Shown piece after piece: positions 35,040 through 55,083 of a DNA stretch of 64,000 nt. Position 1 is the first letter of the stretch; every line of letters starts with the position of its first letter. Location of the stretch: the NCBI RefSeq assembly GCF_010548145.1, contig NZ_JAAGLN010000001.1:62001-126000 (forward strand), given 5' to 3'. This DNA is from Streptomyces sp. SID10853 (GTDB lineage: Bacteria; Actinomycetota; Actinomycetes; Streptomycetales; Streptomycetaceae). The notes beneath the pieces were generated by a model. That model was not told where the DNA came from. It did no database searches and saw only the letters and a program-made list of their open reading frames with translations. A program made the translations under genes and the position numbers.

Positions 35040-35693
35040 TCACTCCTCGGGATGCTCGCGGGCGGACTTGAGGATCAGGTTCCAGACAGGCCGAGAGTAG
35101 GTCTTCTCTGTCTGCTGCTGAAGTCGAGGGATCAGGGTCGCGTTCGTGGCGCCGGGGTTCGCCGCGATGGCCTCTCGTGCGAGAGCGAGCCGCTCGTCCC
35201 CCTGGTACGGGTAGGCCAGGCCCCGGCGGCCCTTGGGCCGCCCGCCGGCGTGGCCACGACCTTTCCGGTTCGCGAGGTACTGCCACAGCCTCCAGCGCTT
35301 CCACTTCGGACGCCGCCGGGTCGGGAGCTCGTCCCAGTCGTCCGGTGCCGGCCACCCGTCGGGCGGGTTCTTGACGTAGTGGGAGACGGTGGCGGAGTCG
35401 GCGAACCCGCAGACTTTCGCCGCTTCGGCCGGGCCGACCATCTCTTCGGGGTCGCCGTCGAGCTTCGGCGAGTTCGTGGTGTTCGCGGCTGCGCGCTGTC
35501 GCTGAAGCTCATGGTGCCACGATGCCCAGACGTCGTCGTCCCAGTGCATGACGCCGTCGATGGTCTCCGCGACAGGCGGGTGACCGTTGTTCTCCCGGTC
35601 GGTCCAGAGGTTCTGAAGCGTGGACTCGCTGAGGCCGTGAGCTTGGCGCAGGTCCGCTCGTGAGTAGAGCGTGCGGCTGGTTTTTCTGGGCAC
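35040..35693 (-). CDS. DNA-binding protein with two HTH-like segments
   Basis: 217 residues; GTG at 35693 with CAGGAGAC six bases upstream. Residues 5-60 (RTLYSRADLRQAHGLSESTLQNLWTDREN ... HWDDDVWASW) look like a MerR/excisionase-type winged helix. Residues 80-140 (GPAEAAKVCGFADSATVSHYVKN ... KWKRWRLWQYLANRKGRG) look like a second. The C-terminus is helical. It could regulate the block upstream or act as an excision or partition factor. It is the last regulatory-looking gene of the leftward block. Confidence 0.6.
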   Translation of the reverse strand: MPRKTSRTLYSRADLRQAHGLSESTLQNLWTDRENNGHPPVAETIDGVMHWDDDVWASWHHELQRQRAAANTTNSPKLDGDPEEMVGPAEAAKVCGFADSATVSHYVKNPPDGWPAPDDWDELPTRRRPKWKRWRLWQYLANRKGRGHAGGRPKGRRGLAYPYQGDERLALAREAIAANPGATNATLIPRLQQQTEKTYSRPVWNLILKSAREHPEE

Positions 35694-35736
35694 GGTCGTC
35701 TCCTGTGTACTCGGGGTCGTGACCGCTCGGTGGGGG

Positions 35737-36015
35737 TCACTGGGTGTCGTCCGGATCCGGGGCCGGCGCCCATGTACGGCTGCCCGCCTTGTCGAGCCGG
35801 GTGAGGGTGGCGATGTCGGCCAGGGGAACGGCCGCGGCCCAGTCGGCGCGGCCGAGGTGACCGGTGGGGAGGTTGAGCACGACGTGCCGTCCGGTCGGGG
35901 GGAAGTCCTCAACAACCACGAAGCTGTCAGTGTGATCAGCACCGATGCTGTTACCCCTCTTGAGCTGGGCGATGTCGCCAGGCTGGGGACAGTCTGGGTG
36001 TCGGTCGCATATCAT
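35737..36015 (-). CDS. Hypothetical protein
   Basis: 92 residues, ATG at 36015. N-terminal MICDRHPDCPQPGDIAQL, with two Cys and a His, precedes a strand-rich middle (FVVVEDFPPTGRHVVLNLPTG). Similar short proteins occur on actinobacterial plasmids. The upstream region carries the CTCTCACCAG element (36028-36037) and a degenerate copy of the repeated promoter at 36161. Confidence 0.5.
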   Translation of the reverse strand: MICDRHPDCPQPGDIAQLKRGNSIGADHTDSFVVVEDFPPTGRHVVLNLPTGHLGRADWAAAVPLADIATLTRLDKAGSRTWAPAPDPDDTQ

Positions 36016-36160
36016 GATGTGGTCTTTCTGGTGAGAGAGACACCGACGGCCAGCGCCTTGTTGCCCTTGTGCGCTGGCCGTCATCTGTTGTCTGGGATGG
36101 TGCGGCGTCCGTGGGACGCGCTGCCGCCCGGAGGTTGCCCGCTCCGCTAACGGCGGAGTA

Positions 36161-36189
36161 ATTAAACCACCTTTGCGTTGAGTGGGGGT
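36161..36189 (-). promoter_or_regulatory. Degenerate copy of the repeated promoter
   Basis: The TTTAAT minus-10 is kept within the shared GGTTTAATTA, but the place of the minus-35 reads ACCCCC instead of TTGNCN. A GGTTGCCC core also occurs at 36133. It may be weak, activator-dependent or decayed. It faces the gene at 36015, about 146 bases away. Confidence 0.35.
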
Positions 36190-36217
36190 GGGGCCCTGAT
36201 CCGGAGGACCGCGGTCA

Positions 36218-36823
36218 TCAGAAGAGGGCCCCCTGATCCGGGGGGCGGCGGCTCCTGCCGCTCGGTGGCCGGGCGACGTGAAGTTCATAGCGGGGGTGTC
36301 CCGCGTTCGGTGGAGCGTGAGCTTCGCGGCGGTACCGGCTCCAAGCCAGGACTGGGGCGCCCTGGTCGATCCAGCCTTCCGGGTACTGGGAGGTGAGCTG
36401 AGCCCAGCGGCTCCGGCTCTGCTTAACGGCCCATCGGTCCTCGACGATGGTGATCGGTGGCAGCGTCCGCCAGCCGGGGAATGCGTGGTCGTGGGCGTCC
36501 TCCACTGCCTCGTTGTCGCCGTCGCCGTATCCGCTACCGCGGTGAACGGGGCCTTCCCAGTCGCAGGCGAGACACCCGCCCCGGAACTGCTGCTCTTCCC
36601 GGCGGCCGGTCCATCGGCTGCGGGAGATCAGGGTCGGGGTGTGGTGTGCGGGCGGGTCCAGCTCGTGACCGAGGTCGCAGTAGGCGCCGCCGGGGTGTCC
36701 GGGCTGGATGTGCCACGCCTGCGCCGCGGTCTCGGGCCGGTGGCGGGTCCGCGCGTTGCGCACTCGCCAGTAGTACGTCTGCCGCGCCCGTGCCCCGCTC
36801 GGCTCGGCGACGGTGGCCGTCAC
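36218..36823 (-). CDS. DUF6349-like protein
   Basis: 201 residues from a GTG overlapping the next gene upstream by four bases (GTGA). Features: CDLGHELDP, GGCLACDWEGPVHRG, DNEAVEDAHDHAFPGWRTLPPI, and QYPEGWIDQGAPVLAWSRYRR. The Cys/His set and the PGWR.LP and PEGW segments match what I remember of the DUF6349 family of actinobacterial phages and plasmids. Likely a zinc-binding protein acting on nucleic acid; function unproven. Confidence 0.6.
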   Translation of the reverse strand: MTATVAEPSGARARQTYYWRVRNARTRHRPETAAQAWHIQPGHPGGAYCDLGHELDPPAHHTPTLISRSRWTGRREEQQFRGGCLACDWEGPVHRGSGYGDGDNEAVEDAHDHAFPGWRTLPPITIVEDRWAVKQSRSRWAQLTSQYPEGWIDQGAPVLAWSRYRREAHAPPNAGHPRYELHVARPPSGRSRRPPDQGALF

Positions 36824-37218
36824 GGTGTCCTGCTTCCGGCGGCGAGCACTTCGCGGAGGGGGTCCGCGAGCACGGCCTGTTCGTCGGGGGCATCGAGGAA
36901 TCGCGGCCCGTACGCACGGCGCACGGCTCGGCGGGCGTCCTGGTGGCGATCAAGCTCCGGGTAGTACGGCGACCGGTCGAGCACTCCATAGCCGTGCTGG
37001 GTGAGCACATCGGCGATCACCGAGCGGACCCGTACGGGGTCGAGGGTGGAGAGGTCGGTTTCCCCGGGGGCCGCGAGGAGTACGCGGATCAGCTCGGTCG
37101 CGCTGAGCCGGGGGTGGAGGGGAACGCTGAGCCGGTGGACGCCGTCCCTGCTGGGGGTGGCAGCTCCTCGGCGGCTCGGCGTCCTGGTGGTGCTGCGGTC
37201 TTCTGTCGTCTCATCCAT
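36820..37218 (-). CDS. Hypothetical protein
   Basis: 132 residues; ATG at 37218 with GAAGG nine bases upstream (the frame stays open to 37350). The middle LSATELIRVLLAAPGETDLSTLDPVRVRSVIADVLTQHGYGVLD is helical with a conserved look, followed by AVRRAYGPRFLDAPDEQAVLADPLREVL. No family recognised. Overlaps its downstream neighbour by four bases. Confidence 0.5.
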   Translation of the reverse strand: MDETTEDRSTTRTPSRRGAATPSRDGVHRLSVPLHPRLSATELIRVLLAAPGETDLSTLDPVRVRSVIADVLTQHGYGVLDRSPYYPELDRHQDARRAVRRAYGPRFLDAPDEQAVLADPLREVLAAGSRTP

Positions 37219-37262
37219 CGTGCTGGCCTTCGATGACTCGGGATGCTGGCGGGCGGTGAGGG

Positions 37263-37691
37263 TCAGAACGGGGCGCGTTCGGCGCGGGTGGCGGCGGTGC
37301 GGAACGCGCGGGCGGCGTCGGCGGCAGTATGTCCGGGCTCGGCGCTCCACCGGTCGAGGACCCGGCGGTGCAGGACCTTGGCGGCTGCCGGGTCGTCGGC
37401 GTCCACGGGGTGACCGGTGAGGGCTTCCGCGAGGAGGGCGAACGCCTCATCGCGTGCGCGGTCGATGCGGTCCCAGTCGTACGTCCGGCCGGCGGCTCCC
37501 CGCCCGTGTCCGGCGGCGACTTGGAGGGCGCCGCGCGGCCAGCACGGCAACGTGGCGGTGCGGCCGGGACCGTCGAACAGGCGCGGGCCCTGGTGGATGC
37601 CGACGTGTTCGATGTGGCGGGCGGCCCATTCCAGGATCGCGGTGGGGGCGTCAGCGATGACGATGCTCTCGGGGGTGTGGCGGGTCGGCAC
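37263..37691 (-). CDS. DUF6197-like protein (paralogue 1)
   Basis: 142 residues from a GTG with GAAGGA eight bases upstream. The segment AILEWAARHIEHVGIHQGPRLF matches ILTAAADHIARVGLYQGDHRW of the gene at 48998-49462, and both end with a helical stretch. That is the pattern of the DUF6197 family of Streptomyces elements. Function is unknown. Two diverged copies in one element suggest an old duplication or separate acquisitions. Confidence 0.6.
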   Translation of the reverse strand: MPTRHTPESIVIADAPTAILEWAARHIEHVGIHQGPRLFDGPGRTATLPCWPRGALQVAAGHGRGAAGRTYDWDRIDRARDEAFALLAEALTGHPVDADDPAAAKVLHRRVLDRWSAEPGHTAADAARAFRTAATRAERAPF

Positions 37692-37752
37692 GGTGCTGTC
37701 CTTCGGGAGAGCCGGGGGCGGCGGCACGCTGCCGCCGCCTCCGGTCGGGCTG

Positions 37753-38403
37753 CTAGTGGTAGGCGGGGATCAGTCGGCGGACCTTGTCCTCCCCGATGCA
37801 CCCGCCCTTGTGGCGGCGCGCGCTCGGCGGCTCCCCGTTGCGCCCGCGCAAGTGCGACCAGAACTTCAGGCCCTCCCAGCCACACAATTCACAGTGCAGG
37901 TACCAGTGGTTATCGCTGCCAGGGAACCCGGTGAGGACCGCCCGCCAGAAGTGGTCCCCCAGTCCCGCGAACGCGATCTCGGCGCCCTCGGTATTGCGGT
38001 AATTGACCGGCATCCGCGGGTGCAGGAGGGGCACCGGCCCGACCAGCGGCGTGGGGGCCTCGGCGAGGACCTGTCCCATAGGGACCGCGCCGATCCGACC
38101 GGCGGCGTACTCCTCGGCGAGATGCGCGGCGGCCATCTCGGTGCCCGGGGTCCCCTTGGCCGGGCGGCGAAGGTTGTGTTCGCCTGCGGTGGTGAGGACG
38201 AGCCAATCCCGGTGCCACCGGAAGGCGCGGCCGATGACCTGGTCTTCGCCGACGATCACGGGGTATCGGCACTGGATGTCGGGGGTGCCGACGCGGTACG
38301 TCGGGACGGTGGTGCCGCCGCCGGTCGCGGGGACGATGAGCCTGCCCATTTCGGTGTCGGGGACGGTGATGGTCGCGGGTCGTTCGAGGAGTTGCGTAGT
38401 CAT
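37753..38403 (-). CDS. Hypothetical protein with a C-terminal zinc-binding motif
   Basis: 216 residues, ATG at 38403. A strand-rich N-terminus (RYPVIVGEDQVIGRAFRWHRDWLVLTTAGEHNL) precedes CELCGWEGLKFWSHLRG ... RRHKGGC, a likely zinc site. CTCTCACCAG lies at 38418-38427 before the ribosome site. Typical of uncharacterised plasmid leading-region genes. Confidence 0.5.
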   Translation of the reverse strand: MTTQLLERPATITVPDTEMGRLIVPATGGGTTVPTYRVGTPDIQCRYPVIVGEDQVIGRAFRWHRDWLVLTTAGEHNLRRPAKGTPGTEMAAAHLAEEYAAGRIGAVPMGQVLAEAPTPLVGPVPLLHPRMPVNYRNTEGAEIAFAGLGDHFWRAVLTGFPGSDNHWYLHCELCGWEGLKFWSHLRGRNGEPPSARRHKGGCIGEDKVRRLIPAYH

Positions 38404-38475
38404 GGTGGGGCCCTGTTCTGGTGAGAGAGGGGCCCGCCCCGGCGTGCTCGGCCGCCGGGGCGGGCGGGAGCGCGA

Positions 38476-39873
38476 TTACGCGGCCTCGGCGTCCTGGGCC
38501 TGCGGGGCGGCGGTCCACTTACGGCGCGGGGTAATGCCCAACTCGGCGAGGAGGGGGGCGTGGCTGCCGTTGTCCGCCACCCATTCCCAGTCGGCGCCCT
38601 CGGTGCCCGGCCGGTCGGTCCAGGTGAGCATGTAGGAGCGGCCGGAGGTGCGGGGGTCGCCACACACGGCCTGCGCTTCGCGGCGGGTCATCGCCCACAA
38701 GGCGCGCTTGCGACGGCGCGGGGAGTTCTTCGAGGCAATCAGCACCAGCGCCATGCCGTCCAACCAGCTCGCCCCCACGGCGGGGGCCGCTGCTGCGGTC
38801 GGCTCCCCGACCGGTACAGGTTCCTCGACCGCCGGGGACTGCTCGGCGATCTCCTGCGGTTCGGCGCCCGGGGCCTGGGGCGGCTGCTGCATCTCGTCGG
38901 CGCTCTTACGCCCGGATACGTCGTCGTAGGCGGCGGTCCATGTCCAGTCGTCGTACTGGTTGCCGGTGGCGCGGACGATGCTCCTGCCGGGGCTGTTGTG
39001 GATGTGCGGGATGGTCACGGACTTCGGGTTGACCCGCAGGACCTCGTACCAGGTTCCGCGGTAGAGAACGAAGTCCCCGCGCTTGAAGTCGGCCCGCGAC
39101 CAGATCTTGAAGCCCTCGGCTTCGGCGTCCTTGATGACCTTCTCCCAGTGGGCGATCTCCTCAGTCAGCTCCTGGTGCTCGATCTCCAGCTCCGGGTCTG
39201 CCGGGTTCCGGGAGAACCCCTTGGCGGACTGGCCGCGCTGCCACTTCTCGACCGCGCGGAGGTCGGCCCGCAGCTTGTCGAGACGGCGGAGCGTGCGGCC
39301 TGGGTCCTTCCTGAACTGCTGGTAGTTCGCGGCGGCCTGCGCCCGGCCGGTCCAGTGGGAGGCGCGGTCGCTGCCGCTGATGCTCTTGTGCATCGCGTCG
39401 TCCATCCGTGCGTGATCGCGGCGGGCGCGGCCCTCGGAATGGTGACCGACGAGGATCGGCTGACCGAAGGCGAACCGCTCGGATATGTCGTGGCTCTGCT
39501 TCCACGCAGCCTCGGAGGACTGGGCGGCGTTGGCGGCGTACTCCCCGAACCGTTCGGCGCGGCCTTCGGCCTCCTCCTTTCGCTCCTGTTCGGCCTCGCT
39601 GAAGCTCCGGCGGTCGGAGTTGTCGATGGTCAACGTGACCTCGAAGCCTGCGTCTCGGAGTCGCTGGGCGAGGCGTTCGAGCGAGGGGGTGTAGGTGGCG
39701 TGGTCGCGGCTGTGGGGGAGGTACCAGCAGTCGAGGTTCCTGCTCCAGCGGAAGGGCTGGCGCTGGGTGCGGCCGTACTCACGGAGTCGCAGGATCTCGG
39801 CCGATCCGTCGCCTCGGCTGGTCCCCTCGATCAGGGTTCCTTCTCGGCGGGTGTGGGTGATCTCGATAGTCAT
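38476..39873 (-). CDS. DUF3560 family protein
   Basis: 465 residues, ATG at 39873 preceded by CTCTCACCAG. Core: SEAEQERKEEAEGRAERFGEYAANAAQSSEA, then RFAFGQPILVGHHSEGRARRDHARMDDAMHKSI and a coiled helix; this is the DUF3560 signature. N-terminal 100 residues contain RWSRNLDCWYLPHSRDH and YTPSLERLAQRLRDAGFEV. A C-terminal region has a KOW-like strand run (GDFVLYRGTWYEVLRVNPKSV). Common on actinobacterial plasmids; probably interacts with DNA early after transfer, but function is not known. Confidence 0.8.
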   Translation of the reverse strand: MTIEITHTRREGTLIEGTSRGDGSAEILRLREYGRTQRQPFRWSRNLDCWYLPHSRDHATYTPSLERLAQRLRDAGFEVTLTIDNSDRRSFSEAEQERKEEAEGRAERFGEYAANAAQSSEAAWKQSHDISERFAFGQPILVGHHSEGRARRDHARMDDAMHKSISGSDRASHWTGRAQAAANYQQFRKDPGRTLRRLDKLRADLRAVEKWQRGQSAKGFSRNPADPELEIEHQELTEEIAHWEKVIKDAEAEGFKIWSRADFKRGDFVLYRGTWYEVLRVNPKSVTIPHIHNSPGRSIVRATGNQYDDWTWTAAYDDVSGRKSADEMQQPPQAPGAEPQEIAEQSPAVEEPVPVGEPTAAAAPAVGASWLDGMALVLIASKNSPRRRKRALWAMTRREAQAVCGDPRTSGRSYMLTWTDRPGTEGADWEWVADNGSHAPLLAELGITPRRKWTAAPQAQDAEAA

Positions 39874-39887
39874 TGAACTGGTCTTTT

Positions 39888-40201
39888 CTGGTGAGAGTTT
39901 GTGGTCCGCAGGGCGGACCGTGCGTTGGCAGCGGTGCTGCACCACCGGCGTGGGCCGTGAGGGACGATCGGCTCGCGGGTCGTCGCGCCTGCGCGGCGAC
40001 AGGGGCAGTCGCGCCCCCGCGGGGCGCGTCCGCTGCGGTCCGGTGCCCGTCGTCGGTCGGCGGAGCCGCCTGCGGCGGAGTCGGCCGGCGGCGGTGAACG
40101 CACCGGACCTGTCCTGCCGCCCCGAAGGGGTGTCCGCTGGGGGTGCTCGGGGGCCTGCCGGTCCGGAGGGTTGCCCTCCCCCGGACCGGCGGGCCTGGTT
40201 G
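39888..40201. other. Non-coding leader with strong hairpin between two leading-region genes
   Basis: No gene is seen in these roughly 314 bases. A long inverted repeat at 40158-40191 (GCCGGTCCGG ... CCGGACCGGC around GGTTGCCCTC) is another member of the hairpin family found beside the repeated promoters, here without a promoter. CTCTCACCAG (minus strand) lies at the left end, 39888-39897. Confidence 0.5.
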
Positions 40202-40624
40202 TCAGCTGCGGTGGAGCGTGTGGCGGGCGGCCGGGTCGGCGTCGGCAAGGCCGGTCCGCTCGCGCCATGCCTGGCGGACGGCGGTGCGGAGCGCGTCCCC
40301 GTCGTCGTAGGCGAACCGGCCCCGGCGCAGACCGCACACGATGTCGCGGAAGACGTCCGGGTTCATCGTGGTGAGCGTGTCGTCCAGCGGGGTCAGCTCG
40401 TGCGGGTGCATCGCCTGGACGCTGTCGCCGGGCTCCGGGGCACCGAGGGTGAAGAACCAGACCACGGACATGGTGGCCTCGTCCGCGAACTCCGGACCGC
40501 CGAAGGGACCGACGACGACGGCGGGGCGGGTGTCCTGCTGGTGGCCCCGGTGCCACGGTCCGGCGATCACGAGCGTGGCGGTGGGGAAGTCGCGGACGGT
40601 GGGCTTCTGGTCGGTGGTGAGCAT
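40202..40624 (-). CDS. Hypothetical protein
   Basis: 140 residues, ATG at 40624 with AGGGA upstream and CTCTCACCAG at 40638-40647. Begins TTDQKPTVRDFPTATLVIAGPWHRG and contains SVVWFFTLGAPEPGDSVQAMHPHELTPLDD; the C-terminus is helical (DALRTAVRQAWRERTG). No family is recognised. First gene behind the promoter at 40720. Confidence 0.5.
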   Translation of the reverse strand: MLTTDQKPTVRDFPTATLVIAGPWHRGHQQDTRPAVVVGPFGGPEFADEATMSVVWFFTLGAPEPGDSVQAMHPHELTPLDDTLTTMNPDVFRDIVCGLRRGRFAYDDGDALRTAVRQAWRERTGLADADPAARHTLHRS

Positions 40625-40719
40625 GTCGAATCCCTGTCTGGTGAGAGGTTCCGCCGGGGCCGGTCGGCCCCGGCGGGGGGGTCGGTCGGGGGGTTGCCCT
40701 CCCCCTTCCGACACCATTA

Positions 40720-40748
40720 ATTAAACCATGTTCTTGGGTTCGGGTCAA
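40720..40748 (-). promoter_or_regulatory. Repeated leading-region promoter, copy 1
   Basis: On the minus strand: TTGACC, 17 bases, TTTAAT. It is the best match to the sigma-70-type consensus among the six copies. The transcript would begin close to GGTGTCGG, form a hairpin (40685-40712) and reach the ATG at 40624 after roughly 90 bases. Confidence 0.75.
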
Positions 40749-41599
40749 CCGGTCACGGCAAGTTCGCGGCGGCGCTCGGCGGCGGCCCGGACTGTGCTTG
40801 CGATGGCGCGGCCGGTCTCGATGGCCCGTACGGCGGCCTCATGAACCGGGGGCTTCTTGCCATCAGTGATGATGCCCGCGAGCGGCGGCATGACGGCGGG
40901 GCCGGGAGCGATTCCGAGGATGAGCGCGGCGACGTGGGCGGCGGACGCAACTTCCGCTTCGCGCTGCCCGTACACGGGTGCGTCAAGTTCGCTGATGCGC
41001 CGAAGCGCGGAGTTGTAGAGGTGGAGGCGGACGGCGTAGTCGCACTCCCCGTCGGCGTCGGGCACGCCGTCGGCTCCGGAGATGGCGGCCCAGACTTCTT
41101 CGACGGTGAACCGCGCGGGCGTGGGCGGCTCGTAGTCGTCCCCGTCGGTCTGGCTGATGTCGAAAACCGGTCCGGCCTTAAAGCCGGACACCTTGCGCGA
41201 CTCGCCCTCGGCGGTCTCGGCGGCGGTCTCCCGATGCCCGCCGTCGGCGGGTGCGGCCGTGGCCTCCTGGCCACCCTCGGGCCGCCGCTTGATGGGCGTC
41301 CAGATGCGGAGCGAGGTGGAGCCCTTGGTCGGGAAGCGTCCGACCTTCCGCCAGTCGCCGGAGCTGAGTATGTGGGTGGCGTTGGGATGCTGAGCGGCGA
41401 CGGCAATGCAGTTGGTGGGGCTGCGGTCGTCGCGGTCAGTGTGGGTGAGGTTCGCGGCCGTGCGCATGACGGCGGCCCAGAAGTCTTCGCTGCTGACCAT
41501 CGCGCCGTACGCACGATCCATGACGGCTTCTAGTTCGCCGCGCATCTTGACGGAGTAGGCCCGGCGCTCTTCGTCGGTCATCTTCGGCTTACGGGGCAT
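40745..41599 (-). CDS. ArdC-like antirestriction / ssDNA-binding domain protein
   Basis: 284 residues; ATG at 41599. The N-terminal 150 residues follow the ArdC N-domain: FWAAVMRTAANLTHTDRDDRSPTNCIAVAAQHPNATHILSSGDWRKVGRFPTKGSTSLRIWTPI, then VSGFKAGPVFDISQTDG. That domain binds single-stranded DNA and protects incoming plasmid DNA from restriction in known ArdC proteins. The peptidase half (HExxH) of full-length ArdC is absent; the C-terminus is helical. It stands behind its own copy of the repeated promoter, as expected for an early anti-restriction gene. Confidence 0.75.
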   Translation of the reverse strand: MPRKPKMTDEERRAYSVKMRGELEAVMDRAYGAMVSSEDFWAAVMRTAANLTHTDRDDRSPTNCIAVAAQHPNATHILSSGDWRKVGRFPTKGSTSLRIWTPIKRRPEGGQEATAAPADGGHRETAAETAEGESRKVSGFKAGPVFDISQTDGDDYEPPTPARFTVEEVWAAISGADGVPDADGECDYAVRLHLYNSALRRISELDAPVYGQREAEVASAAHVAALILGIAPGPAVMPPLAGIITDGKKPPVHEAAVRAIETGRAIASTVRAAAERRRELAVTG

Positions 41600-41690
41600 G
41601 TCGCGGTCCTCCTGGTGAGATGGACGTCCGGGGCCGGCTGGCCCTCGGGGCGTCGATCGGGGGGTTGCCCTCCCCCTTCCGACACCATTA

Positions 41691-41719
41691 ATTAAACCAT
41701 GTTCTAGGGTGATCGGCAA
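41691..41719 (-). promoter_or_regulatory. Repeated leading-region promoter, copy 2
   Basis: Minus strand TTGCCG, 17 bases, TTTAAT, 92 bases from the ArdC-like start. The leader hairpin around GGTTGCCCTC (41663-41672) and CTCTCACCAG-like sequence (41612-41620) follow. The minus-35 overlaps nearly the end of the neighbouring gene at 41724. Confidence 0.75.
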
Positions 41720-41723
41720 CCCC

Positions 41724-42083: not shown

Positions 42084-42143
42084 CCTGGGCCTTTCTGGGG
42101 AGGGCAGCGCGCTGGGTCGCGCGCCGCCGTAACGCACGGGGAG

Positions 42144-42776
42144 TTAGAGGGCGTATCCGTCGACGTATTGGCCGCGCTCCCCCTCGGGGGTCTGGACGTG
42201 GGGAAGGAATCGGCTCACCGCGAATACGACGGCGTCGGCAATGATTCGGGGTGCGTCGTTGAGTACGAGACTCACGGTGTCGCCGTCGAGCCCGATACGG
42301 ACTTCGCCCGGTTCAAGATTCATGTAGACATGGGCGGTTGTGCCGTCGATTCGGGTTCGCGCTCCGGGGAGTCGGGCGGAGAGTTCGCGGGCGGCTTCCT
42401 CGACGTCCCGGCGCATTGCGGCCTGCGCGCGGTTGTGTTCCTTCACGCGCTCGTGAACGTCACGGTGCACGGGGATGAGATCGGCGGCGATCTGGGCCGC
42501 GATGTCCGCCGGGTCCTCGGTCATGGCGACTCGGACCGTGTCGCGCTCGCCCCTGCGGAAACCGTAGTCGGTGGCGGGGAATGCGCCCCGGATGTGCAGG
42601 TGTCCGGGGTCATCGAACCGCTCGGAGAGGTGGAGCTGTCGGCCGTCCAGGTGCGTGAACGTGGCGGCGTGGTCCAGCTCCTGGAGGCCGTGGCGCGCGG
42701 GCTGCGGTCGCCAGTTCCCGCCGAGTTCGAGGGCGATCGGGTGGGACAGTTCTGCGACGGTGAGAGGCATATTCAT
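42144..42776 (-). CDS. Hypothetical protein
   Basis: 210 residues, ATG at 42776 with AGGAG eight bases upstream. A strand-rich first half (ATFTHLDGRQLHLSERFDDPGHLHIRGAFP) is followed by a helix (RDVHERVKEHNRAQAAMRRDVEEAARELSARL) and more strands (THVYMNLEPGEVRIGLDGD-like). No catalytic motif. A degenerate leader hairpin (CGTTGCCCTC at 42839) lies upstream. Confidence 0.5.
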   Translation of the reverse strand: MNMPLTVAELSHPIALELGGNWRPQPARHGLQELDHAATFTHLDGRQLHLSERFDDPGHLHIRGAFPATDYGFRRGERDTVRVAMTEDPADIAAQIAADLIPVHRDVHERVKEHNRAQAAMRRDVEEAARELSARLPGARTRIDGTTAHVYMNLEPGEVRIGLDGDTVSLVLNDAPRIIADAVVFAVSRFLPHVQTPEGERGQYVDGYAL

Positions 42777-42857
42777 TGGTCGTTCTCCTGGCGGAAGAGT
42801 TGGCGGCGGCCGGTCGGCCTGCCTGGTAGATGACGGGGCGTTGCCCTCCCCGCCCGA

Positions 42858-43043
42858 CTATTCTGATTCGACCGTTACTGAGCACTGGTGCCCGAAAATG
42901 ACCTTGAGCATGGAATCGACGTAGGGCACATCGCCACTTATTCGGGCCTTCAGCCCACATCGACCGCACTCGTAATTGACACTCAGAGCGTTAGGCCGGA
43001 TCGCGTCAGCGAACCGAGTAAAAGCTGCTTTAACCGTCTTCAT
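42858..43043 (-). CDS. Small Cys-rich protein, probable zinc ribbon
   Basis: 61 residues; the ATG at 43043 has AAGG eight bases upstream, and a GTG at 43052 is too close to it. Contains YECGRCGLKARISG and a terminal HQC, enough for one zinc site. CTCTCACCAG at 43056-43065 and the promoter at 43134 lie just upstream. Unknown role. Confidence 0.55.
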   Translation of the reverse strand: MKTVKAAFTRFADAIRPNALSVNYECGRCGLKARISGDVPYVDSMLKVIFGHQCSVTVESE

Positions 43044-43133
43044 TTCCAACACCTTCTGGTGAGAGTGAGTGTCGGCGGCCGGTCGGCCTGCCGTGTGCCG
43101 GTCGGGGGTTGCCCTCCCCTTCCGACATCACTA

Positions 43134-43162
43134 ATTAAACCACGTTCTAGCGGGTGGCGCAA
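43134..43162 (-). promoter_or_regulatory. Repeated leading-region promoter, copy 3
   Basis: Minus strand TTGCGC, 17 bases, TTTAAT, 91 bases before the small zinc gene. Beyond it (upstream of the promoter) comes the 156-nt folded element at 43245. The promoter and the folded element are repeated together at 50.4 kb. Confidence 0.75.
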
Positions 43163-43244
43163 CCCGGACATGGGCCCTGACCTGCTCTTTCCTCGTTCCG
43201 CCGACCCGCACTCACCCGGCCGGGCCGCGCCCACCACGAGCCTG

Positions 43245-43400
43245 GGCGGGGTTCCCTCCTCGGTCGGACAGCTCCGCCGTATCAGGGTTCCGGGCGCGGT
43301 GTCCTGGCTCGCGCAGCGACCGCGAAGCGGCTCGGCCTGGACTCCGCGCCCGGGTTCCTGATACGCCCCCCGGGTGTCCGGCCGAGGAGGGAACCCCGCC
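43245..43400 (+). repeat. Folded 156-nt element, copy 1 (nested inverted repeats)
   Basis: Outer arms 43245-43270 and 43375-43400 pair over 26 positions with a single G-T wobble. Inner arms 43278-43299 and 43344-43365 pair over 19 positions around a 3-base internal loop. The centre contains small hairpins such as CCGC-GAA-GCGG. A near copy lies at 50475-50631, and similarity extends over roughly 350 bases on both sides, including the adjacent promoter. The 43044-43531 gap has no gene. A structured RNA or single-strand DNA signal on the plus strand fits the wobble pattern. Confidence 0.7.
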
Positions 43401-43531
43401 TCCACCACCCGCACCACAACGAACCCGCACCCAACCAACCAGCCCCCACCCCCTCCGAGTAGGACCCGCCGGAGGCAGCCCTTCCACCCCGCCGGCACCC
43501 ACCGAATCGGCGGGCATCAACTCCGAGCGGA

Positions 43532-43741: not shown

Positions 43742-43843
43742 GGCCCTAATTCCATCATGTGTTCGATTTAGTGGGCACGTCGATCTTGCTGAGTGTCCGG
43801 GAGGTCGAGCAGCATGCGCCCGGATCGGTCACCACGCCCGTCG

Positions 43844-44944: not shown

Positions 44945-45286
44945 GGGGGTGTTCCTCGGGATCGGTGGTGCGGTCGGCGGCGTGCCGTACCGATGTCGGG
45001 GAGGTGCCGCCCGTCATCGTGCGGAGCGCGATGGACAGTGCCGTCGTGCCCGAAGGGCACGCCCTTGGGCCCGGCGTCCGGACGGGACGGGAGGGCCGCC
45101 CGCGGCCCGGACGTTCCGGCCGGCTGCGAGCCGGGCCGGGCTGAGCCGTCCCGCAGGGACGCCCTTTGTACGGGGCCCGATGTCCGGTACCCGGCCGCCG
45201 ACGCGGCGGTTCCGGACGACGGTGGGCGCTGCGTGGGGTGGGCGGCTCGATGCCGCCCACCCCACGGCCCGGCGGCCGGGCTCCTG

Positions 45287-46504: not shown

Positions 46505-46638
46505 CGTGGGTACTCCTGCTGGTGAGAGAGGAATCGCGGGCCCGGCCGGGCGGGTTGCCCTCCGCGTTCGGCCGGTCTCGGGCCGACTGGCGGCCCGTCG
46601 TGTCGGAGGAGGGTTGCCCTCCCCCTCCGACACCATTA

Positions 46639-46667
46639 ATTAAACCATGTCTTGGGGTGTGGGGCAA
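46639..46667 (-). promoter_or_regulatory. Repeated leading-region promoter, copy 4
   Basis: Minus strand TTGCCC, 17 bases, TTTAAT, with a 135-base leader to the gene at 46504. This leader contains two GGTTGCCCTC cores (46612 and 46553). The first hairpin differs from the others by a paired change (G-T wobble positions become A-T), which supports the stem. Confidence 0.75.
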
Positions 46668-47062
46668 GCATCCCGGCCGGGGATGGCGAGTGCGGCGCGG
46701 TCACGCAGGAACGCGGCGAACAGGGCGGCGGTGTAGCTGTCGGCGGTGCCGTACGTGCGGCGGCAGTCCAGTGCGCCGATGCGCTCGCCCCGGTGGTGGA
46801 CGGGGAACGCTGCGCCGGGGGCGGGGATGGCGAGCGCGTACAATCCGCGCGGCGTGTCCACGCGCAGGACGACGGCAGCGGCCTGGTGGTCGTAGGCGGC
46901 GGACCAGCGGCGGGGCCCGATGCCGAACTCTGCGAGTCCACCCGCGATGGCGCGGACCTGCATGATGTCGGCGGCGGTACCGGGGTCGGGCTCGGCGGGG
47001 GCGGGAACGCATCCGCAACCGTGGTCGTCGGCGTGGGTCTCGGGCAGAGCTGTACGGGTCAC
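46640..47062 (-). CDS. Hypothetical protein
   Basis: 140 residues; GTG at 47062 with CAGGAG upstream. HADDHGCGCVPAP at the N-terminus may be a metal site; then a strand-rich stretch (SAAYDHQAAAVVLRVDTPRGLYALAIPAPGAAFPVHHRG) and a helix (DSYTAALFAAFLRDRAAL). Its end overlaps the promoter of the next gene downstream. Unknown role. Confidence 0.5.
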   Translation of the reverse strand: MTRTALPETHADDHGCGCVPAPAEPDPGTAADIMQVRAIAGGLAEFGIGPRRWSAAYDHQAAAVVLRVDTPRGLYALAIPAPGAAFPVHHRGERIGALDCRRTYGTADSYTAALFAAFLRDRAALAIPGRDACPTPQDMV

Positions 47063-47128
47063 TGTGGGGCTCCTGGGGTGACCGGGGGCGGGAGGGTTCC
47101 CGCCCCCGGCATCGGGCGGCTGAGGTGG

Positions 47129-48904
47129 TTAGGCGGCGGCTTCGTCGTCGCTGTCGCTGGCCGGGTCGTCGACCTCCTCGGCCTCCGGCTCGCCCGTCTC
47201 CTCGTCGGTGCCGGGCTCCTGCTCGGCCTCCGGCTCACCGCCCGCCGTGATCGCGCGGGGCTTCTTCTTCGACGGGTCGTAGGGCTCCCCGTCCACGACC
47301 GACTGCTCAATGGGCGTGAGCGGGTACCCGAGGGACGCGAGCACCTGGAACCACCTGCCGGTGGGCTTCCGGGTCCACGGGGCGTGCTGGCTGTCCGTCC
47401 TCCACGCGGAACGGTTCGCACACTTCTCCCGGACGGCGGCGATGGCGGCGAACTGGAGCTGCGGGGCCCTGCGGGGGTCCTTGGCAACGTGCCCGGCGAA
47501 GCTGCCCCGGTCCTTGGCCTGCTCGGTGCTCAGCCCCAGGAAGGCGGCCAGGATCTCGGTCGTCGGCTCCTTGACCAGCTCGTCAAGTCCCCAACTGCCG
47601 TTCAACAGGGCATTGTTCACGTGCCCGATCAGAGTGTTGGTGGTGGCCTTCGGGAGGTTGCGCCGCTTGATCAGGTCAGTGATCCACTTCCGGCGCAGGG
47701 CTTCGGCCGCGTCCCAGTCGATGTTCCCCTTCTTGACGGCGGCGCGGGCGGCGCGCTCGGCCTCCACCTCGGCGGCGGTCTTCGTGCCGCTGCTGCCGCT
47801 GCTGCCCTCGGGCACCGTGTGCCCGTACAGGCCGGGGGCTGAGCAGTAGGGCTCGTACCGGTCTGCCCGCCGCTCATCGAACACCCACACCAGACCCTTG
47901 CACTCGGCGTGCTCCTCGGTGCTGATGCCGCGCAGTCGCCATACGGGCATGGCGCGCTCGGACAGTTCGTCGGCGTCCCTGATCTTCTGCCCGGCCGCCT
48001 CCAGCTCGGCGCGGTGGGCCTCGGCCTTCGTCCGCTTGTCGCGCTTGGTCCGCTCGACGGCGATGGCCCAGTCAACGTCTCCCTCGTCGGCGTCGTCGTC
48101 GGCGGCGGCCTCGGTGATCGCGGCGAGCGCTTCGGCGTCGTCCGCGAACTCCGACAGCGCGGCCAAGTGCTCGAACGTCCACTCGTAGCTGCTCGCGCCG
48201 CTGACGGCGGCCGACAGCTTCTCGTCGGACCGGACCTTGACCAGCGTCTTGACGTCCTTCTGCCGCACGCCTGCGGCCTTGGCGATGCGGCCCACCTGCG
48301 CGCCCGCTTCGGCCGCGCTGAACATCGCCTGGTTCATCTCGGAAGTGCTCAGGCTCTTGCGGTGCTGAGCGGTCGTGATCATGTCGAGGAACTGGCCCGC
48401 CGCGTCGCGGTCGTCGTCCTCCCACTCGTACGGCAGGTGGGTAAGACCCGCGTCCGTCGCGGCGTGGTAGCGGCGGTTTCCGTCGTTGACCTGGAGGACT
48501 CCGCCGTCGAGTCGCTGGATCTTGACGGGGATGCGGCACCCCTCGGTGCGGAGCGAATCCACGAACGGCGCACTGATATCCAGGTCTTCGCGGGCGTTCT
48601 TCGGGTGCGGGGTGAGCGCGTCGATCCGGATCACGGGGCGCGGGGTGACCGGCACGGTCTCCAGTCCTGCGGCGACGGCGGCGGCCAGCCGCTGGAACCC
48701 GTCGATGACCTGCGGCACGTCGCCGTGGGTGCGCACGACGTAAAGCGGCTCCTCGACGCCGTTGTCCTTCACGTCGGCCAGCAGATCGGCCGGGGCCTCG
48801 ATGTCGCGGACGTTGCCGGGGTGCGCGGCCAGCTCGGCGACGGTGAGCGTCGGCCACGGGGCAGGGGCGGCCTGGACGCCGGCCTGGGTCTTGGTGTTCG
48901 TCAT
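47129..48904 (-). CDS. ParB-like protein with two N-terminal ParB domains
   Basis: 591 residues; ATG at 48904 with AAGGA upstream. Residues 18-85 (LTVAELAAHPGNVRD ... PQVIDGFQRLAAAVAAGL) and 90-165 (IRIDALTPHPKNARED ... LQVNDGNRRYHAATDAGL) are two successive ParB-type nucleotide-binding/nuclease domains. The usual ParB HTH follows (MFSAAEAGAQVGRIAKAAGVRQKDVKTLVKV). The 350-residue C-terminus is helical and very acidic at the end. No ParA gene is seen. It may stabilise the element or act on incoming DNA. Confidence 0.8.
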   Translation of the reverse strand: MTNTKTQAGVQAAPAPWPTLTVAELAAHPGNVRDIEAPADLLADVKDNGVEEPLYVVRTHGDVPQVIDGFQRLAAAVAAGLETVPVTPRPVIRIDALTPHPKNAREDLDISAPFVDSLRTEGCRIPVKIQRLDGGVLQVNDGNRRYHAATDAGLTHLPYEWEDDDRDAAGQFLDMITTAQHRKSLSTSEMNQAMFSAAEAGAQVGRIAKAAGVRQKDVKTLVKVRSDEKLSAAVSGASSYEWTFEHLAALSEFADDAEALAAITEAAADDDADEGDVDWAIAVERTKRDKRTKAEAHRAELEAAGQKIRDADELSERAMPVWRLRGISTEEHAECKGLVWVFDERRADRYEPYCSAPGLYGHTVPEGSSGSSGTKTAAEVEAERAARAAVKKGNIDWDAAEALRRKWITDLIKRRNLPKATTNTLIGHVNNALLNGSWGLDELVKEPTTEILAAFLGLSTEQAKDRGSFAGHVAKDPRRAPQLQFAAIAAVREKCANRSAWRTDSQHAPWTRKPTGRWFQVLASLGYPLTPIEQSVVDGEPYDPSKKKPRAITAGGEPEAEQEPGTDEETGEPEAEEVDDPASDSDDEAAA

Positions 48905-48996
48905 CGGTCCTTCTTCTTCCTGGTGAGAGTTGGTCGGGCCGTCCGGCCCGGTGGGGTGTCGGTCGGGGGGTTGCCCTCCCCCTTCCGACACCATTA

Positions 48997-49025
48997 ATTA
49001 AACCATCTTCTTACGGGTGGGGCAA
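48997..49025 (-). promoter_or_regulatory. Repeated leading-region promoter, copy 5
   Basis: Minus strand TTGCCC, 17 bases, TTTAAT, 93 bases before the ParB-like start. The leader has GGTTGCCCTC (48969-48978, plus strand) and CTCTCACCAG (48920-48929). It overlaps the 3' end of the DUF6197-like gene at 48998. Confidence 0.75.
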
Positions 49026-49462
49026 CCGGGGGTGCTGTGATCGCCGTCACTCGGGTGCAGCGCTGCGGCGGCGCGGATCATCGCGGCGGCCTCGGCGGTG
49101 GTCCGCTCGGGTTCGTCCCCCCAGCACCACAGGAGAGTGCGCCGGTAGGCGTCCTCCGTGAGCTTGAGCTTTCGCCACCGGACGCCGGACACGGGGCGGC
49201 CGTTGGCGTGGTTGCTGAGCACCACAAGGGAGTCGGACAGGGCGCGTTGGAAGATGTCCCACGGTTCACCGCGTACGGACCAGCGGGGCCGGACGGAGCG
49301 CACGCCGCGTTCCCATGCGTGCAGCACGGTGCACGGGGCGCTGTCGCCCATACGGCCGGGCTGCCAGCGGTGGTCTCCCTGGTAGAGCCCGACCCGTGCG
49401 ATGTGGTCGGCGGCGGCGGTGAGGATGCGGGCGGGGGTGGCCGGGGGCTTTCGTGTCGCCAC
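48998..49462 (-). CDS. DUF6197-like protein (paralogue 2)
   Basis: 154 residues from a GTG at 49462 with AGGAGG seven bases upstream; the ATG at 49468 is too near that site. ILTAAADHIARVGLYQGDHRW matches the paralogue at 37.3-37.7 kb. Then VLHAWERGVRSVRP and VVLSNHANGRPVSG, and a helical RTTAEAAAMIRAAAAL end. Unknown function. Confidence 0.6.
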   Translation of the reverse strand: MATRKPPATPARILTAAADHIARVGLYQGDHRWQPGRMGDSAPCTVLHAWERGVRSVRPRWSVRGEPWDIFQRALSDSLVVLSNHANGRPVSGVRWRKLKLTEDAYRRTLLWCWGDEPERTTAEAAAMIRAAAALHPSDGDHSTPGCPTRKKMV

Positions 49463-49535
49463 GGTCATGCCTCCTGAGTTGGTCGCGGACTCGGCAGTCG
49501 GGGGGGCGGACGACCGCCCCCCGACCCTGGCGGGG

Positions 49536-50276
49536 CTACGCGGCTATGGACCCGGCCGAGGTGCGGCCGATCCGCTTACCGCCGATGTCGGCCCGGCTTC
49601 CCGCGACCCATCCGGCCCCGTACCCGTTGCCGGTCATGGTCGTGGTGCCACCCTTCCGTGAACGCGGGTATGCCTGCTGGTAGTTGCGGGAGACGACGGC
49701 CTTGCGGTCCGCGAGCACAAGGGCCGCGCTGCGGCCGGTGGCGCTGGTCTCACCCCTAGCCTCTTCGCGTGCGCCGCGCTCGGCCTCCTCGATGCGGTCG
49801 CCAACCCGATTGATGAAGCCGAGGAGCCAGGATCGACGCCAGGCACGCGCGCCCTGGCCCGGCGGGACCGCCTGAGCGGCAAGTCCGCTGTTCATCTGGA
49901 GCAGTAGAGAGGTGTAGAGCAGCTCGACGCGCTGAAGGTCGCTCGCGTACCCGAAGACGTGCACCCGGCGGGCCGGACCGCTGCCGTCCCGGCCAAGGTG
50001 AATGAGCTGGCATCCGAGAGCAAGCGCAATGCGGTTGATGAGGCGGACCCGCTCCATTGCCCAGGGGTTATCCAGAACGATCTTTCGATCCGCCGGGGCG
50101 TCACTGGCAGGGTTGGCGTCGTTGAGCATGGCCTGTTCGACGCCGTACTTCGCCATCATCTCGAACGCCCGCTTCCGGGCAAGCTCCGCCTCCGACTCCG
50201 GCGTACGGGGGTCCTCCGCCTTGGCGAGAAGGGCGCGGATGGTTTCGAGCTTCGCGGGGGCCTTCGTGGTGCTCAC
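49536..50276 (-). CDS. DUF2786 family protein
   Basis: 246 residues; GTG at 50276 with AGGAG eight bases upstream. The N-terminal ETIRALLAKAEDPRTPESEAELARKRAFEMMAKYGVEQAML is the DUF2786 motif. The second half (RVRLINRIALALGCQLIHLGRDGSGPARRVHVFGYASDLQRVELLYTSLLLQM ... WRRSWLLGFINRVGDRIEEAERGA) matches the DUF7168-like partner region found in phage and plasmid proteins. First gene of the leftward block behind the promoter at 50365. Confidence 0.8.
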   Translation of the reverse strand: MSTTKAPAKLETIRALLAKAEDPRTPESEAELARKRAFEMMAKYGVEQAMLNDANPASDAPADRKIVLDNPWAMERVRLINRIALALGCQLIHLGRDGSGPARRVHVFGYASDLQRVELLYTSLLLQMNSGLAAQAVPPGQGARAWRRSWLLGFINRVGDRIEEAERGAREEARGETSATGRSAALVLADRKAVVSRNYQQAYPRSRKGGTTTMTGNGYGAGWVAGSRADIGGKRIGRTSAGSIAA

Positions 50277-50364
50277 GTTCGTTCTCCTAGTGAGAGAGGT
50301 TGTCGGCGGCCGGTCGGCCTACCGGTGTCGGCCGGGGTGTTGCCCTCCCCTTCCGGCATCATTA

Positions 50365-50393
50365 ATTAAACCACGTTCTAAGGATTGAGTCAA
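50365..50393 (-). promoter_or_regulatory. Repeated leading-region promoter, copy 6
   Basis: Minus strand TTGACT, 17 bases, TTTAAT, 89 bases before the DUF2786 start. It is the rightmost copy and has the second folded element just upstream. Its leader hairpin carries a compensated T-A to C-G change (GTCGG/CCGAC becomes GCCGG/CCGGC). Confidence 0.75.
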
Positions 50394-50474
50394 CCCGGAT
50401 ATAGGCCCTGACCTGCTATTTTCCCGCACCACCGGCCCGCACCCGCTCGGCCGGGCCCGGCCACAACGGGCCTC

Positions 50475-50631: not shown

Positions 50632-50816
50632 TTCACCACCCGCACCACGACGGCGCAGCACCTGACCGACCAGCCCCCACCCCCTCCGAGGAGGACCCGC
50701 CGGAGGCAGCCCTTCCGCCCCCGCTGGCACCCAATGAGCTGGGTTCGAGATGTCCGCGGACCTATGCCTACGGTGCGCGCGACGAGCAGTAGTTTCGAAC
50801 AGAACTGGGGACACGT

Positions 50817-55075: not shown

Positions 55076-55083
55076 GCGCGCTG

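What the first reader, a model, noticed from the sequence alone, without database searches (positions are those of the whole stretch)
35040..50400. Leading-region-like block driven by six copies of one promoter
Seen: six minus-strand promoters (40720, 41691, 43134, 46639, 48997, 50365) all read TTGNCN, exactly 17 bp, TTTAAT; a seventh at 36161 keeps only the minus-10. Five leaders run 89-96 nt from the minus-10 to the start codon; one is 135. The genes include an ArdC-like antirestriction protein, a double ParB-like protein, DUF3560, DUF2786 and an OB-like protein. Known: leading regions of conjugative plasmids (F, and others) carry repeated ssDNA promoters (Frpo-type) before anti-defence and SSB genes. 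Inference: all genes here use the plus strand as template, as expected if the plus strand is transferred first from an oriT near 31.8 kb. I am not aware of such a repeated-promoter leading region described in an actinobacterial ICE. The many unknown genes are then candidate anti-defence factors.
Basis: partly seen in the sequence, partly recalled or inferred. Interest (0 to 1): 0.87.

Follow-up and report, generated by a model that had tools for sequence, protein, structure and literature searches.

The report
Plasmid-specific RNA hairpins on arrival genes
In Streptomyces mobile elements, the genes expected to enter a new cell first carry, just before their start codons, a small hairpin whose loop sequence is the same across one element but differs between element families, which looks like an unrecognised RNA-level switch for genes that help a plasmid settle in.

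Summary
But the promoter is only the front of a larger unit: promoter, 5'-leader hairpin with loop AGGGCAAC, second hairpin, and CUCUCACCAG 20-26 nt before the start codon. The loop also occurs in leaders without an intact promoter. Other Streptomyces elements show the same layout with other loops: AUGGCAG, GCGGGAAU, GCGGCAAC, A[AG]CGGCA. Loops are nearly exclusive to their element type. In GCGGGAAU plasmids 13 of 26 hairpins lie 21-39 nt after the previous stop codon, and promoter-free stems covary. Two window promoters also follow a conserved ~170-bp Y-shaped inverted repeat. Leading-region placement is supported by gene orientation, a conserved candidate oriT, ArdC/ParB/DUF3560 homologues and T4SS genes. 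A Frpo-type ssDNA promoter is not supported: the -10 has no partner. Best reading: an establishment regulon controlled at RNA level through an element-specific loop; the factor that reads it is unknown. The nearest described analogue is EGeRS1 of pLS20, mechanism also unknown.

The parts
50365..50393 (-). promoter TTGACT-N17-TTTAAT of DUF2786 gene
48997..49025 (-). promoter of ParB-like gene
46639..46667 (-). promoter of 405-aa gene (phrog_2319)
43134..43162 (-). promoter, -35 reads TTGCGC (not TTGNCN)
41691..41719 (-). promoter of ArdC-like gene
40720..40748 (-). promoter of DUF6409 gene
36161..36189 (-). degenerate copy: -10 TTTAATTA kept, -35 lost
50326..50358 (-). leader hairpin, loop AGGGCAAC (leader folds no better than shuffles, z -0.9)
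48955..48992 (-). leader hairpin, loop AGGGCAAC
   Evidence: z -3.8
46600..46633 (-). leader hairpin 1 of 405-aa gene
46542..46575 (-). second AGGGCAAC hairpin of the same leader, different stem
43093..43131 (-). leader hairpin, loop AGGGCAAC
42832..42855 (-). promoter-free AGGGCAAC hairpin before 210-aa gene (a longer piece around it folds no better than shuffles, z -0.08)
41649..41686 (-). leader hairpin, loop AGGGCAAC
40679..40715 (-). leader hairpin, loop AGGGCAAC
   Evidence: z -4.3
40157..40190 (-). promoter-free AGGGCAAC hairpin directly after the DUF6409 stop codon
36045..36082 (-). AGGGCAAC hairpin with a different stem before DUF6211 gene, behind the degenerate promoter
43240..43410 (-). 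Y-shaped long inverted repeat, copy 1
50470..50641 (-). Y-shaped long inverted repeat, copy 2 (94% identical)
49536..50276 (-). DUF2786/DUF7168 protein, 246 aa
48998..49468 (-). DUF6197 protein
47129..48904 (-). ParB-like protein, 591 aa
45287..46504 (-). 405-aa protein, phrog_2319 (unknown function)
42858..43043 (-). 61-aa ORF behind promoter 43134
42144..42776 (-). 210-aa protein, conserved in relatives
40745..41599 (-). ArdC-like protein, 284 aa
40202..40624 (-). DUF6409 protein
38476..39873 (-). DUF3560 protein
37753..38403 (-). 216-aa protein; homologues in types A, B, C (short matches in E) carry the leader of their own element type
36820..37350 (-). DUF6181 protein
35737..36015 (-). DUF6211 protein
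35040..35693 (-). multi-HTH protein, 217 aa, family found in types A, B, C and E; candidate regulator
31775..31807 (.). candidate oriT: hairpin GTATCGTCAC-TC-CGTGACGATAC with conserved flank; nic expected on the + strand (inferred)
27302..31732 (-). MobF/TrwC relaxase-helicase
925..2373 (+). T4SS protein, TraM-recognition-domain homologue (78% to pMDJK44.2)
53127..54980 (-). tyrosine integrase next to tRNA-Ala 55083-55156

Best explanation
The block is the leading (first-entering) region of a MobF-type ICE of Streptomyces. Its genes form an establishment regulon whose shared regulatory unit is a structured 5' leader: a hairpin with an element-specific loop (here AGGGCAAC), usually a second hairpin, and an element-specific sequence (here CUCUCACCAG) next to the ribosome-binding site. 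Operon heads additionally carry a common promoter and, at two of them, a conserved Y-shaped inverted repeat upstream that may insulate or gate transcription. Proposed mechanism: a trans-acting factor specific to the element (protein, or less likely RNA) reads the loop in each cistron's leader and sets translation, attenuation or stability, so that the establishment genes are switched together, most plausibly on in a naive recipient and off once the factor has built up. Shown: the unit, its structure (strongly in type C), near element-specificity of the loops, cistron-by-cistron placement in type C, and restriction to one block in two complete plasmids. Inferred: RNA level rather than DNA level, the trans-acting factor, the direction of control and the timing.
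For: AGGGCAAC sits in hairpins with and without the promoter in the window. The same architecture with other loops occurs in other Streptomyces plasmids. Type C: of 99 GCGGGAAT octamers scored in 15 loci, 91 are followed within 60 nt by the pre-SD pattern (background rate 9%), and 84 of those 91 form a stem of at least 6 of 9 pairs, against 1 of the 8 others; 29 distinct promoter-free stems pair 262 of 290 cells against a mean of 191 (sd 5.6, max 210) in 1000 shuffles. 26 of 26 structured copies in four annotated plasmids are intergenic, 25 of them 45-69 nt before a start codon, 13 of them 21-39 nt after the previous stop. An unsupervised loop count gives 2-6 distinct stems in 16 type C/E loci against at most 2 in 8 control windows and 80 shuffles. 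Loops are nearly type-exclusive over 51 loci. The homologous 216-aa gene carries the leader of whichever element it sits in, A, B or C. Confined to one block of two complete plasmids. Leading-region anatomy.
Against: Within type A, the type of the window, covariation is weak: 85.8% of cells paired versus 84.3% shuffled (reached by 7 of 500), covariation score reached by 98 of 500; the unsupervised count finds AGGGCAAC with only 2 stems in 10 loci and not at all in about as many other type A loci, hardly above controls. The leader at 50365 folds no better than shuffles (z -0.9) and the piece around 42847 has z -0.08. Under a strict register only 6 of the 10 block octamers of the window count as structured. 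The 216-aa gene of the window has CUCUCACCAG but no AGGGCAAC loop. The shuffles do not correct for relatedness of the loci. No trans-acting factor was identified; the 216-aa protein gave a poor model and no fold match. G-U versus A-C counts, which could tell which strand folds, only lean to the RNA sense (9 v 5 and 28 v 19; 25 v 4 for the Y element, biased by how its pairs were chosen). No expression data.
Confidence: 0.55

Rival explanations
1. Frpo-type single-stranded DNA promoters: the entering + strand folds so that the -35/-10 become double-stranded and RNA polymerase transcribes the leading genes before second-strand synthesis.
For: Gene orientation and candidate oriT make the + strand a plausible template T-strand. 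Establishment-type genes. Strong hairpins near each promoter. The -35 is often paired in ssDNA folds (0.26-0.99).
Against: No perfect complement of the -10 hexamer within 400 nt of any of 6 promoters; mean pairing of the -10 is 0.09-0.67 and 0.35 or less in 31 of 36 folds. Only 2 of 6 -35 boxes have a perfect partner nearby. The conserved hairpin is downstream of the -10 and recurs without any promoter.
Confidence: 0.07
2. Repressor-based transcriptional control as in p576 EGeRS2: ordinary double-strand promoters repressed in the donor by an element-encoded DNA-binding protein (the multi-HTH protein at 35040-35693 is the candidate) and transiently derepressed on entry; the leader hairpins only stabilise or insulate mRNA.
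For: -35/-10 with 17-bp spacing can be read by eye in types A-C. The multi-HTH family occurs with the regulon in types A, B, C and E, with two winged-helix-like domains in the model (MerR-type row Z 6.2, BldC row Z 6.7, middling).
Against: Does not explain promoter-free hairpins with a fixed loop before each cistron, nor loop exclusivity between elements. Binding site not tested. Several distant homologues of the protein lie in loci where no recurrent loop was found (L088, L090-L092).
Confidence: 0.2
3. The hairpins are RNA-processing or mRNA-stabilising sites (RNase III/J/E type) that cut polycistronic mRNA into single-gene units, or attenuators/terminators.
For: Position between cistrons right after stop codons; strong GC-rich stems; EGeRS1 of pLS20 blocks read-through from upstream promoters (PMC8708921, section 13).
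Against: A general host nuclease or terminator gives no reason for an invariant loop that differs between elements in the same genus. By eye no U-tract follows in the leaders printed.
Confidence: 0.13
4. The hairpins act as DNA in the transferred single strand, for example as priming or protein-loading sites for second-strand synthesis; their place before genes is secondary.
For: Confined to the putative leading region in two complete plasmids; both strands would fold.
Against: Fixed distance to the start codon and coupling to a pre-SD motif on the coding strand are unnecessary for a DNA role.
Confidence: 0.05

Closest known systems
EGeRS1 of pLS20-family plasmids (Bacillus), PMC8708921
   Same: Several 62-95% identical, highly structured upstream sequences placed before establishment genes including ardC; found in several plasmids (passages, sections 13 and 20 read).
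   Different: EGeRS1 is 420-751 bp with no promoter detected; here there is a recognisable promoter, a separable small hairpin per cistron and an element-specific loop. In pLS20 the transferred strand is the non-template strand; here it is inferred to be the template. No sequence comparison with EGeRS1 was run.
EGeRS2 / Reg repressor system of p576 (PMC8708921, section 20 read)
   Same: Repeated promoters before establishment genes, a regulator encoded by the element.
   Different: p576 uses a ribbon-helix-helix repressor; here the candidate regulator is a multi-HTH protein and there seems to be an extra RNA layer.
Frpo/ssi promoters of F-like plasmids (PMC11541004, passages read)
   Same: Leading region, anti-defence-type genes, repeated regulatory sequence.
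   Different: The -10 is not in a hairpin and has no ssDNA partner.
Translational-operator hairpins (phage coat operators, CsrA sites; recalled, not tested)
   Same: Short loop motif in varied stems upstream of many start codons.
   Different: No binding protein known; loop differs by element; no Rfam match in the sequences searched.

Membership tests
Leading region of a conjugative element | adjacent to oriT/relaxase and transcribed toward it | tested here: met
   mobF 27302-31732, candidate oriT 31775-31797, block genes on the minus strand; same arrangement in pMDJK44.2 and four other annotated plasmids. The oriT is a sequence candidate only.
Leading region of a conjugative element | carries anti-restriction/establishment genes | tested here: met
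   ArdC-like, ParB-like, DUF3560, DUF2786. No SSB recognised; no PADLOC match in 10 proteins.
Leading region of a conjugative element | enters the recipient first and is expressed early | not testable with these tools
   needs mating and RNA-seq
Frpo/ssi ssDNA promoter | -35 and -10 base-paired within an ssDNA hairpin | tested here: not met
   no -10 complement for 6 of 6; -10 mean pairing 0.35 or less in 31 of 36 folds, -35 pairing 0.26-0.99
EGeRS1 | long repeated structured sequence upstream of several establishment operons | tested here: met
   Y element plus leader: 2 copies in the window, 9 in NZ_CP108590, 59 matches in all loci searched
EGeRS1 | sequence homology to pLS20 EGeRS1 | not tested
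   pLS20 sequence was not fetched
Known RNA family (Rfam 15) | match at gathering score | tested here: not met
   window, L006, L053, L055 and L057: no match except two tRNAs in the window; one chance-level hit at E 0.59. L005, L058 and type E loci not searched.
ICE | integrase, relaxase and T4SS in one integrated element with defined ends | tested here: inconclusive
   integrase and relaxase and T4SS homologues at C111:59288-60811 and 62928-64367 lie in one contig; the second att site was not found in the window. Related elements lie in contigs of 7-8 Mb (G023, G025).

The most novel reading that the evidence does not exclude
Streptomyces conjugative elements carry a modular, orthogonal RNA 'address code': each element family tags the cistrons of its establishment regulon with a hairpin bearing a family-specific loop, read by a cognate factor encoded by the element, so that a resident element of another type cannot silence the incoming element's genes. 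Genes exchanged between elements acquire the tag of the new element.
Probability: 0.35. Interest if true: 0.92.

Novelty: new variant of a known kind. Interest (0 to 1): 0.8.

Why it matters
How establishment genes of Gram-positive conjugative plasmids with EGeRS1 sequences are switched on in recipients is stated to be unknown (PMC8708921, section 20). Here the candidate control element is small, repeated many times per plasmid, comes in at least five loop types and can be swapped, so the question becomes testable with loop mutants and loop swaps. It also gives a simple sequence tag (loop plus pre-SD motif) for finding new establishment and anti-defence genes in Streptomyces plasmids, many of which are annotated only as hypothetical proteins.

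Tried and rejected
Frpo model: rejected. Plain promoter array: rejected because hairpins recur without promoters. Known RNA family: no Rfam match in what was searched. Phage origin: no near match in the phage collection; 12 viral contigs each hold a single match to the leader pattern, treated as chance, loci not read; one viral-contig search for the multi-HTH family found no relative. Antisense RNA with a complementary loop hairpin: no structured copy on the opposite strand of two complete plasmids; other RNA forms not excluded. CsrA-like reading of the loop: only recalled, and AGGGCAAC has no GGA. Strand test by G-U versus A-C: leaning only. Structure of the 216-aa protein: pLDDT 65.6, best Foldseek E 1.2; not interpreted. 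Multi-HTH protein: Foldseek had no match at E 0.001 or better; in the second look the best row is a phage-packaging-redirecting protein (6hn7, Z 7.0, residues 5-78), then BldC (Z 6.7, residues 83-144) and MerR/excisionase rows near Z 6, all of which the tool calls middling. Attachment site: the tRNA-Ala 3' end is not repeated within the window. Y element beyond the genus: 24 of 296 genomes matched at E 0.001; beyond the own genome near-full-length matches came from 3, all of the same genus; the rest are short, among them one 46-nt match in another family (L129) with no leader unit in the sequence printed. My first genus pattern had a wrong gap and missed even the own genome (199 genomes spent for nothing). 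Literature: ten searches listed no paper on such leaders in Streptomyces elements; I saw listings with titles and abstract openings, passages of PMC11541004, and passages plus sections 13 and 20 of PMC8708921.

Rows dropped: of 34 type A promoter leaders found, one (L045:5715) was left out of the alignment and three 46639-type leaders were trimmed to their first two hairpins. In the type A tally three loci (L106, L117, L121) were left out as repeats of L043, L037, L045, judged from equal contig lengths; there 144 octamers in 25 loci gave 94 with and 50 without a following pre-SD pattern (background 3%), 62 and 12 of them structured. The 51-locus matrix and the 59 Y-element matches do include such repeats. 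In one search octamers within 60-70 nt of a locus end were skipped. In one search one of the 38 'unit downstream' cases (L005 14672) is not a real unit by eye, and some true units (window 50470) escaped the pattern. In one search type D is not separable because its motif is degenerate. L099 has a type C leader before its 216 gene but no recurrent loop.

Full report
1. What was claimed and what is there. The pattern TTGNCN-N17-TTTAAT has 5 matches in the window, all minus strand, none in 100 shuffles. The whole 7.77-Mb assembly holds only these five. The repeat search shows that the repeated unit is not just the promoter but a 77-nt stretch reaching from the -35 well past the expected start of transcription. 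Downstream of TTTAATTA follow a G-rich hairpin with loop AGGGCAAC, a second hairpin around GGCCGACCGGCC, and CUCUCACCAG, which begins 20-26 nt before the start codon.

2. The hairpin is separable from the promoter. AGGGCAAC occurs 13 times in the window (2.0 expected, no shuffle as high); 10 of these lie on the minus strand between 36060 and 50346. Four of the ten have no intact promoter directly upstream: 42847, 40177 (just behind the DUF6409 stop), 46561 (second hairpin of one leader) and 36067 (behind the degenerate promoter); three of these have stems unrelated in sequence to the others. CTCTCACCAG occurs 7 times exactly, 0.17 expected, also before the 216-aa gene, whose leader hairpin lacks the loop. 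Folds of the six promoter leaders have z-scores of -4.3 to -0.9; the 50365 leader is not better than shuffles.

3. Relatives. AGGGCAACN{20,50}CTCACCAG was searched in 246 genomes of the genus: 43 have at least one match and 6 have five or more (G000, G006, G023, G025, G085 clustered in one contig; G113 on two contigs); no genome has more than 2 matches to the reversed control. The S. alboflavus plasmid pMDJK44.2 has homologous genes in the same order with the same hairpins, a MobF relaxase and a T4SS. In 33 aligned type A leaders the hairpin is conserved, but the stems vary too little for covariation to be decisive.

4. A second component. Two of the window promoters have their -35 about 75-80 nt behind an imperfect inverted repeat of about 170 bp, 94% identical between the copies (coordinates). 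BLAST found 12 Streptomyces plasmids with it, one with nine copies. In the loci collected there are 59 matches, repeats of the same element included; in 38 of 59 a promoter-leader unit follows 92-152 nt downstream by a strict pattern (one of these looks false), against 2 on the other side. An alignment of 30 copies has a conserved Y-shaped tip with two small hairpins, and 7 of 29 predicted pairs show changes on both sides.

5. Other loops. Reading the leaders in those plasmids showed the same unit with different loops. Type B (S. phaeochromogenes plasmid NZ_CP108590): AUGGCAG. Type C (S. cellulosae, S. anulatus, S. violaceus, S. reticuli and others): GCGGGAAU. Type D (NZ_CP107959): A[AG]CGGCA. 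The promoter-proximal stem GUCGGAAGGGG is shared by types A to C, with one extra G in D, although the loop is not. Each type also has its own pre-SD sequence.

6. The strongest evidence is type C. In 15 loci (276 kb) 99 GCGGGAAT octamers were scored; 91 are followed within 60 nt by the pre-SD pattern (background 9%), 84 of these 91 form a stem of at least 6 of 9 pairs, and 1 of the 8 others does. Of 54 distinct stems, 29 have no promoter motif; in these 262 of 290 cells are Watson-Crick pairs, against a mean of 191 (sd 5.6, maximum 210) when right arms are shuffled; relatedness of the loci is not corrected for. In four annotated plasmids 26 of 26 structured copies are intergenic, 25 of them 45-69 nt and one 119 nt before a start codon; 13 start 21-39 nt after the previous stop codon. 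In the complete S. anulatus plasmid (99.8 kb) the 9 structured copies all lie at 69.5-77.8 kb on one strand, with 6 unstructured octamers, two of them also in leaders; in NZ_CP108590 all 11 structured copies lie on one strand in the block that spans the record start, with 7 unstructured heptamers elsewhere. Controls: the same unsupervised count gives at most 2 stems per loop in 8 control windows and 80 shuffles, against 2-6 in 16 type C/E loci. For type A loci the unsupervised count reaches only 2 or nothing.

7. Exclusivity. Over 51 loci, 26 with at least two structured type A loops hold 1 structured type C loop, 1 type B and no type E; 15 with at least three structured type C loops hold 2 structured type A loops, 2 type B and no type E (type D is too degenerate to score). 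The 216-aa gene is about 70-73% identical between types A and C, yet carries GCGGGAAU and ACCUCAAC in type C, CUCUCACCAG in type A, and a UGGCAG hairpin with CCUUCAACAC in type B.

8. Leading region. The relaxase is MobF/TrwC. Just upstream of its start, the hairpin GTATCGTCAC-NN-CGTGACGATAC with the flank AGGACCAAG is the same in 8 of 8 elements apart from one loop base, while the sequence further upstream diverges; in the window it lies at 31775-31797. By analogy with MobF oriTs (recalled: hairpin 5' of nic) the more conserved flank suggests nicking of the + strand, which would send 33-50 kb in first with the + strand as template. T4SS homologues in the same contig (83% and 78% to pMDJK44.2) make self-transfer plausible. 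Homologues of ArdC, ParB, DUF3560, the 405-aa protein, the 216-aa protein and the multi-HTH protein occur in the type B plasmid.

9. Regulator. A 217-aa protein (35040-35693) belongs to a family found with the regulon in types A, B, C and E: 21 of 150 genus genomes at E 1e-10, the own one included, and 32 named loci. Several distant homologues lie where no recurrent loop was found (L088, L090-L092). The AlphaFold model (pLDDT 77.6, pTM 0.41) has two winged-helix-like domains and a third helical part; the second-look alignments are middling: MerR-type HiNmlR Z 6.2 (rmsd 2.3 over 60 residues) for the first, BldC Z 6.7 (rmsd 2.2 over 54) for the second, and a phage-packaging-redirecting protein as best row for the first (Z 7.0, rmsd 3.1 over 69). 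It is a natural candidate for a DNA-binding regulator; nothing links it to the RNA loop.

10. Mechanism. ssDNA promoter: the -10 hexamer has no perfect complement within 400 nt (6 of 6) and is mostly unpaired in folds of either strand, while the -35 is often paired, so Frpo is not supported. I favour RNA-level control through the loop by an element-encoded factor, because the loop is constant within and different between elements, the stem is free to change if pairing is kept, and the place is tied to the start codon and not to the promoter. EGeRS1 of pLS20, the nearest described case, blocks read-through and showed no constitutive promoter, and its mechanism is stated to be unknown (PMC8708921 sections 13 and 20). 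The Y element could serve such an insulating role here; that is inference.

11. Limits. No expression data; the factor is unknown; the strand test by wobble pairs only leans to the RNA sense; type D rests on few copies and type E on seven; names of proteins follow family databases. Novelty: no Rfam match in the sequences searched and no paper found in ten searches of an open-access library, which does not include most subscription journals.

Noticed in passing
L150 1659-11041 (NZ_CP023977, pMDJK44.2): The closest annotated relative of this ICE carries a type I-E CRISPR-Cas gene set (cas3, casA-E, cas1, cas2), so an element with establishment genes also carries a defence system.
   Followed up: no
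window 18695-19837 and L150 47614-50841: A thymidylate-synthase-like gene in the window resembles in kind a thymidylate synthase / nucleoside-diphosphate kinase / radical SAM cluster on pMDJK44.2, possibly shared nucleoside-type biosynthetic cargo.
   Followed up: no
L005 and L006 (NZ_CP108590), upstream of type B promoters: The type B promoters printed (8 of 8 that follow a Y element) carry a CRP-like palindrome TGTGATNNAG[AG]TCAC upstream of the -35; I did not see one in the type A leaders by eye.
   Followed up: no
L122 (Streptomyces niveiscabiei) about 380: A leader with the shared stem but loop UUGAUG next to the Y element may be a further loop type.
   Followed up: no
L055 4525, L057 8172, L058 11375, L054 14418 leaders: The multi-HTH gene of type C has its own leader variant (GGGGCGCAAAAGCGUGGGAAUCCC in three of the four, similar in L058), different from the other cistrons printed, as if it were regulated separately.
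   Followed up: partly
L129 (another family of the class), about 1505 on the minus strand: A 46-nt match to the Y-element tip outside Streptomyces, 89% identical, without a leader unit in the stretch printed.
   Followed up: partly
G069 and G049 (loci L072/L081 and L075/L082): Distant multi-HTH homologues occur twice, towards both ends of one contig, consistent with terminal inverted repeats of linear chromosomes.
   Followed up: no
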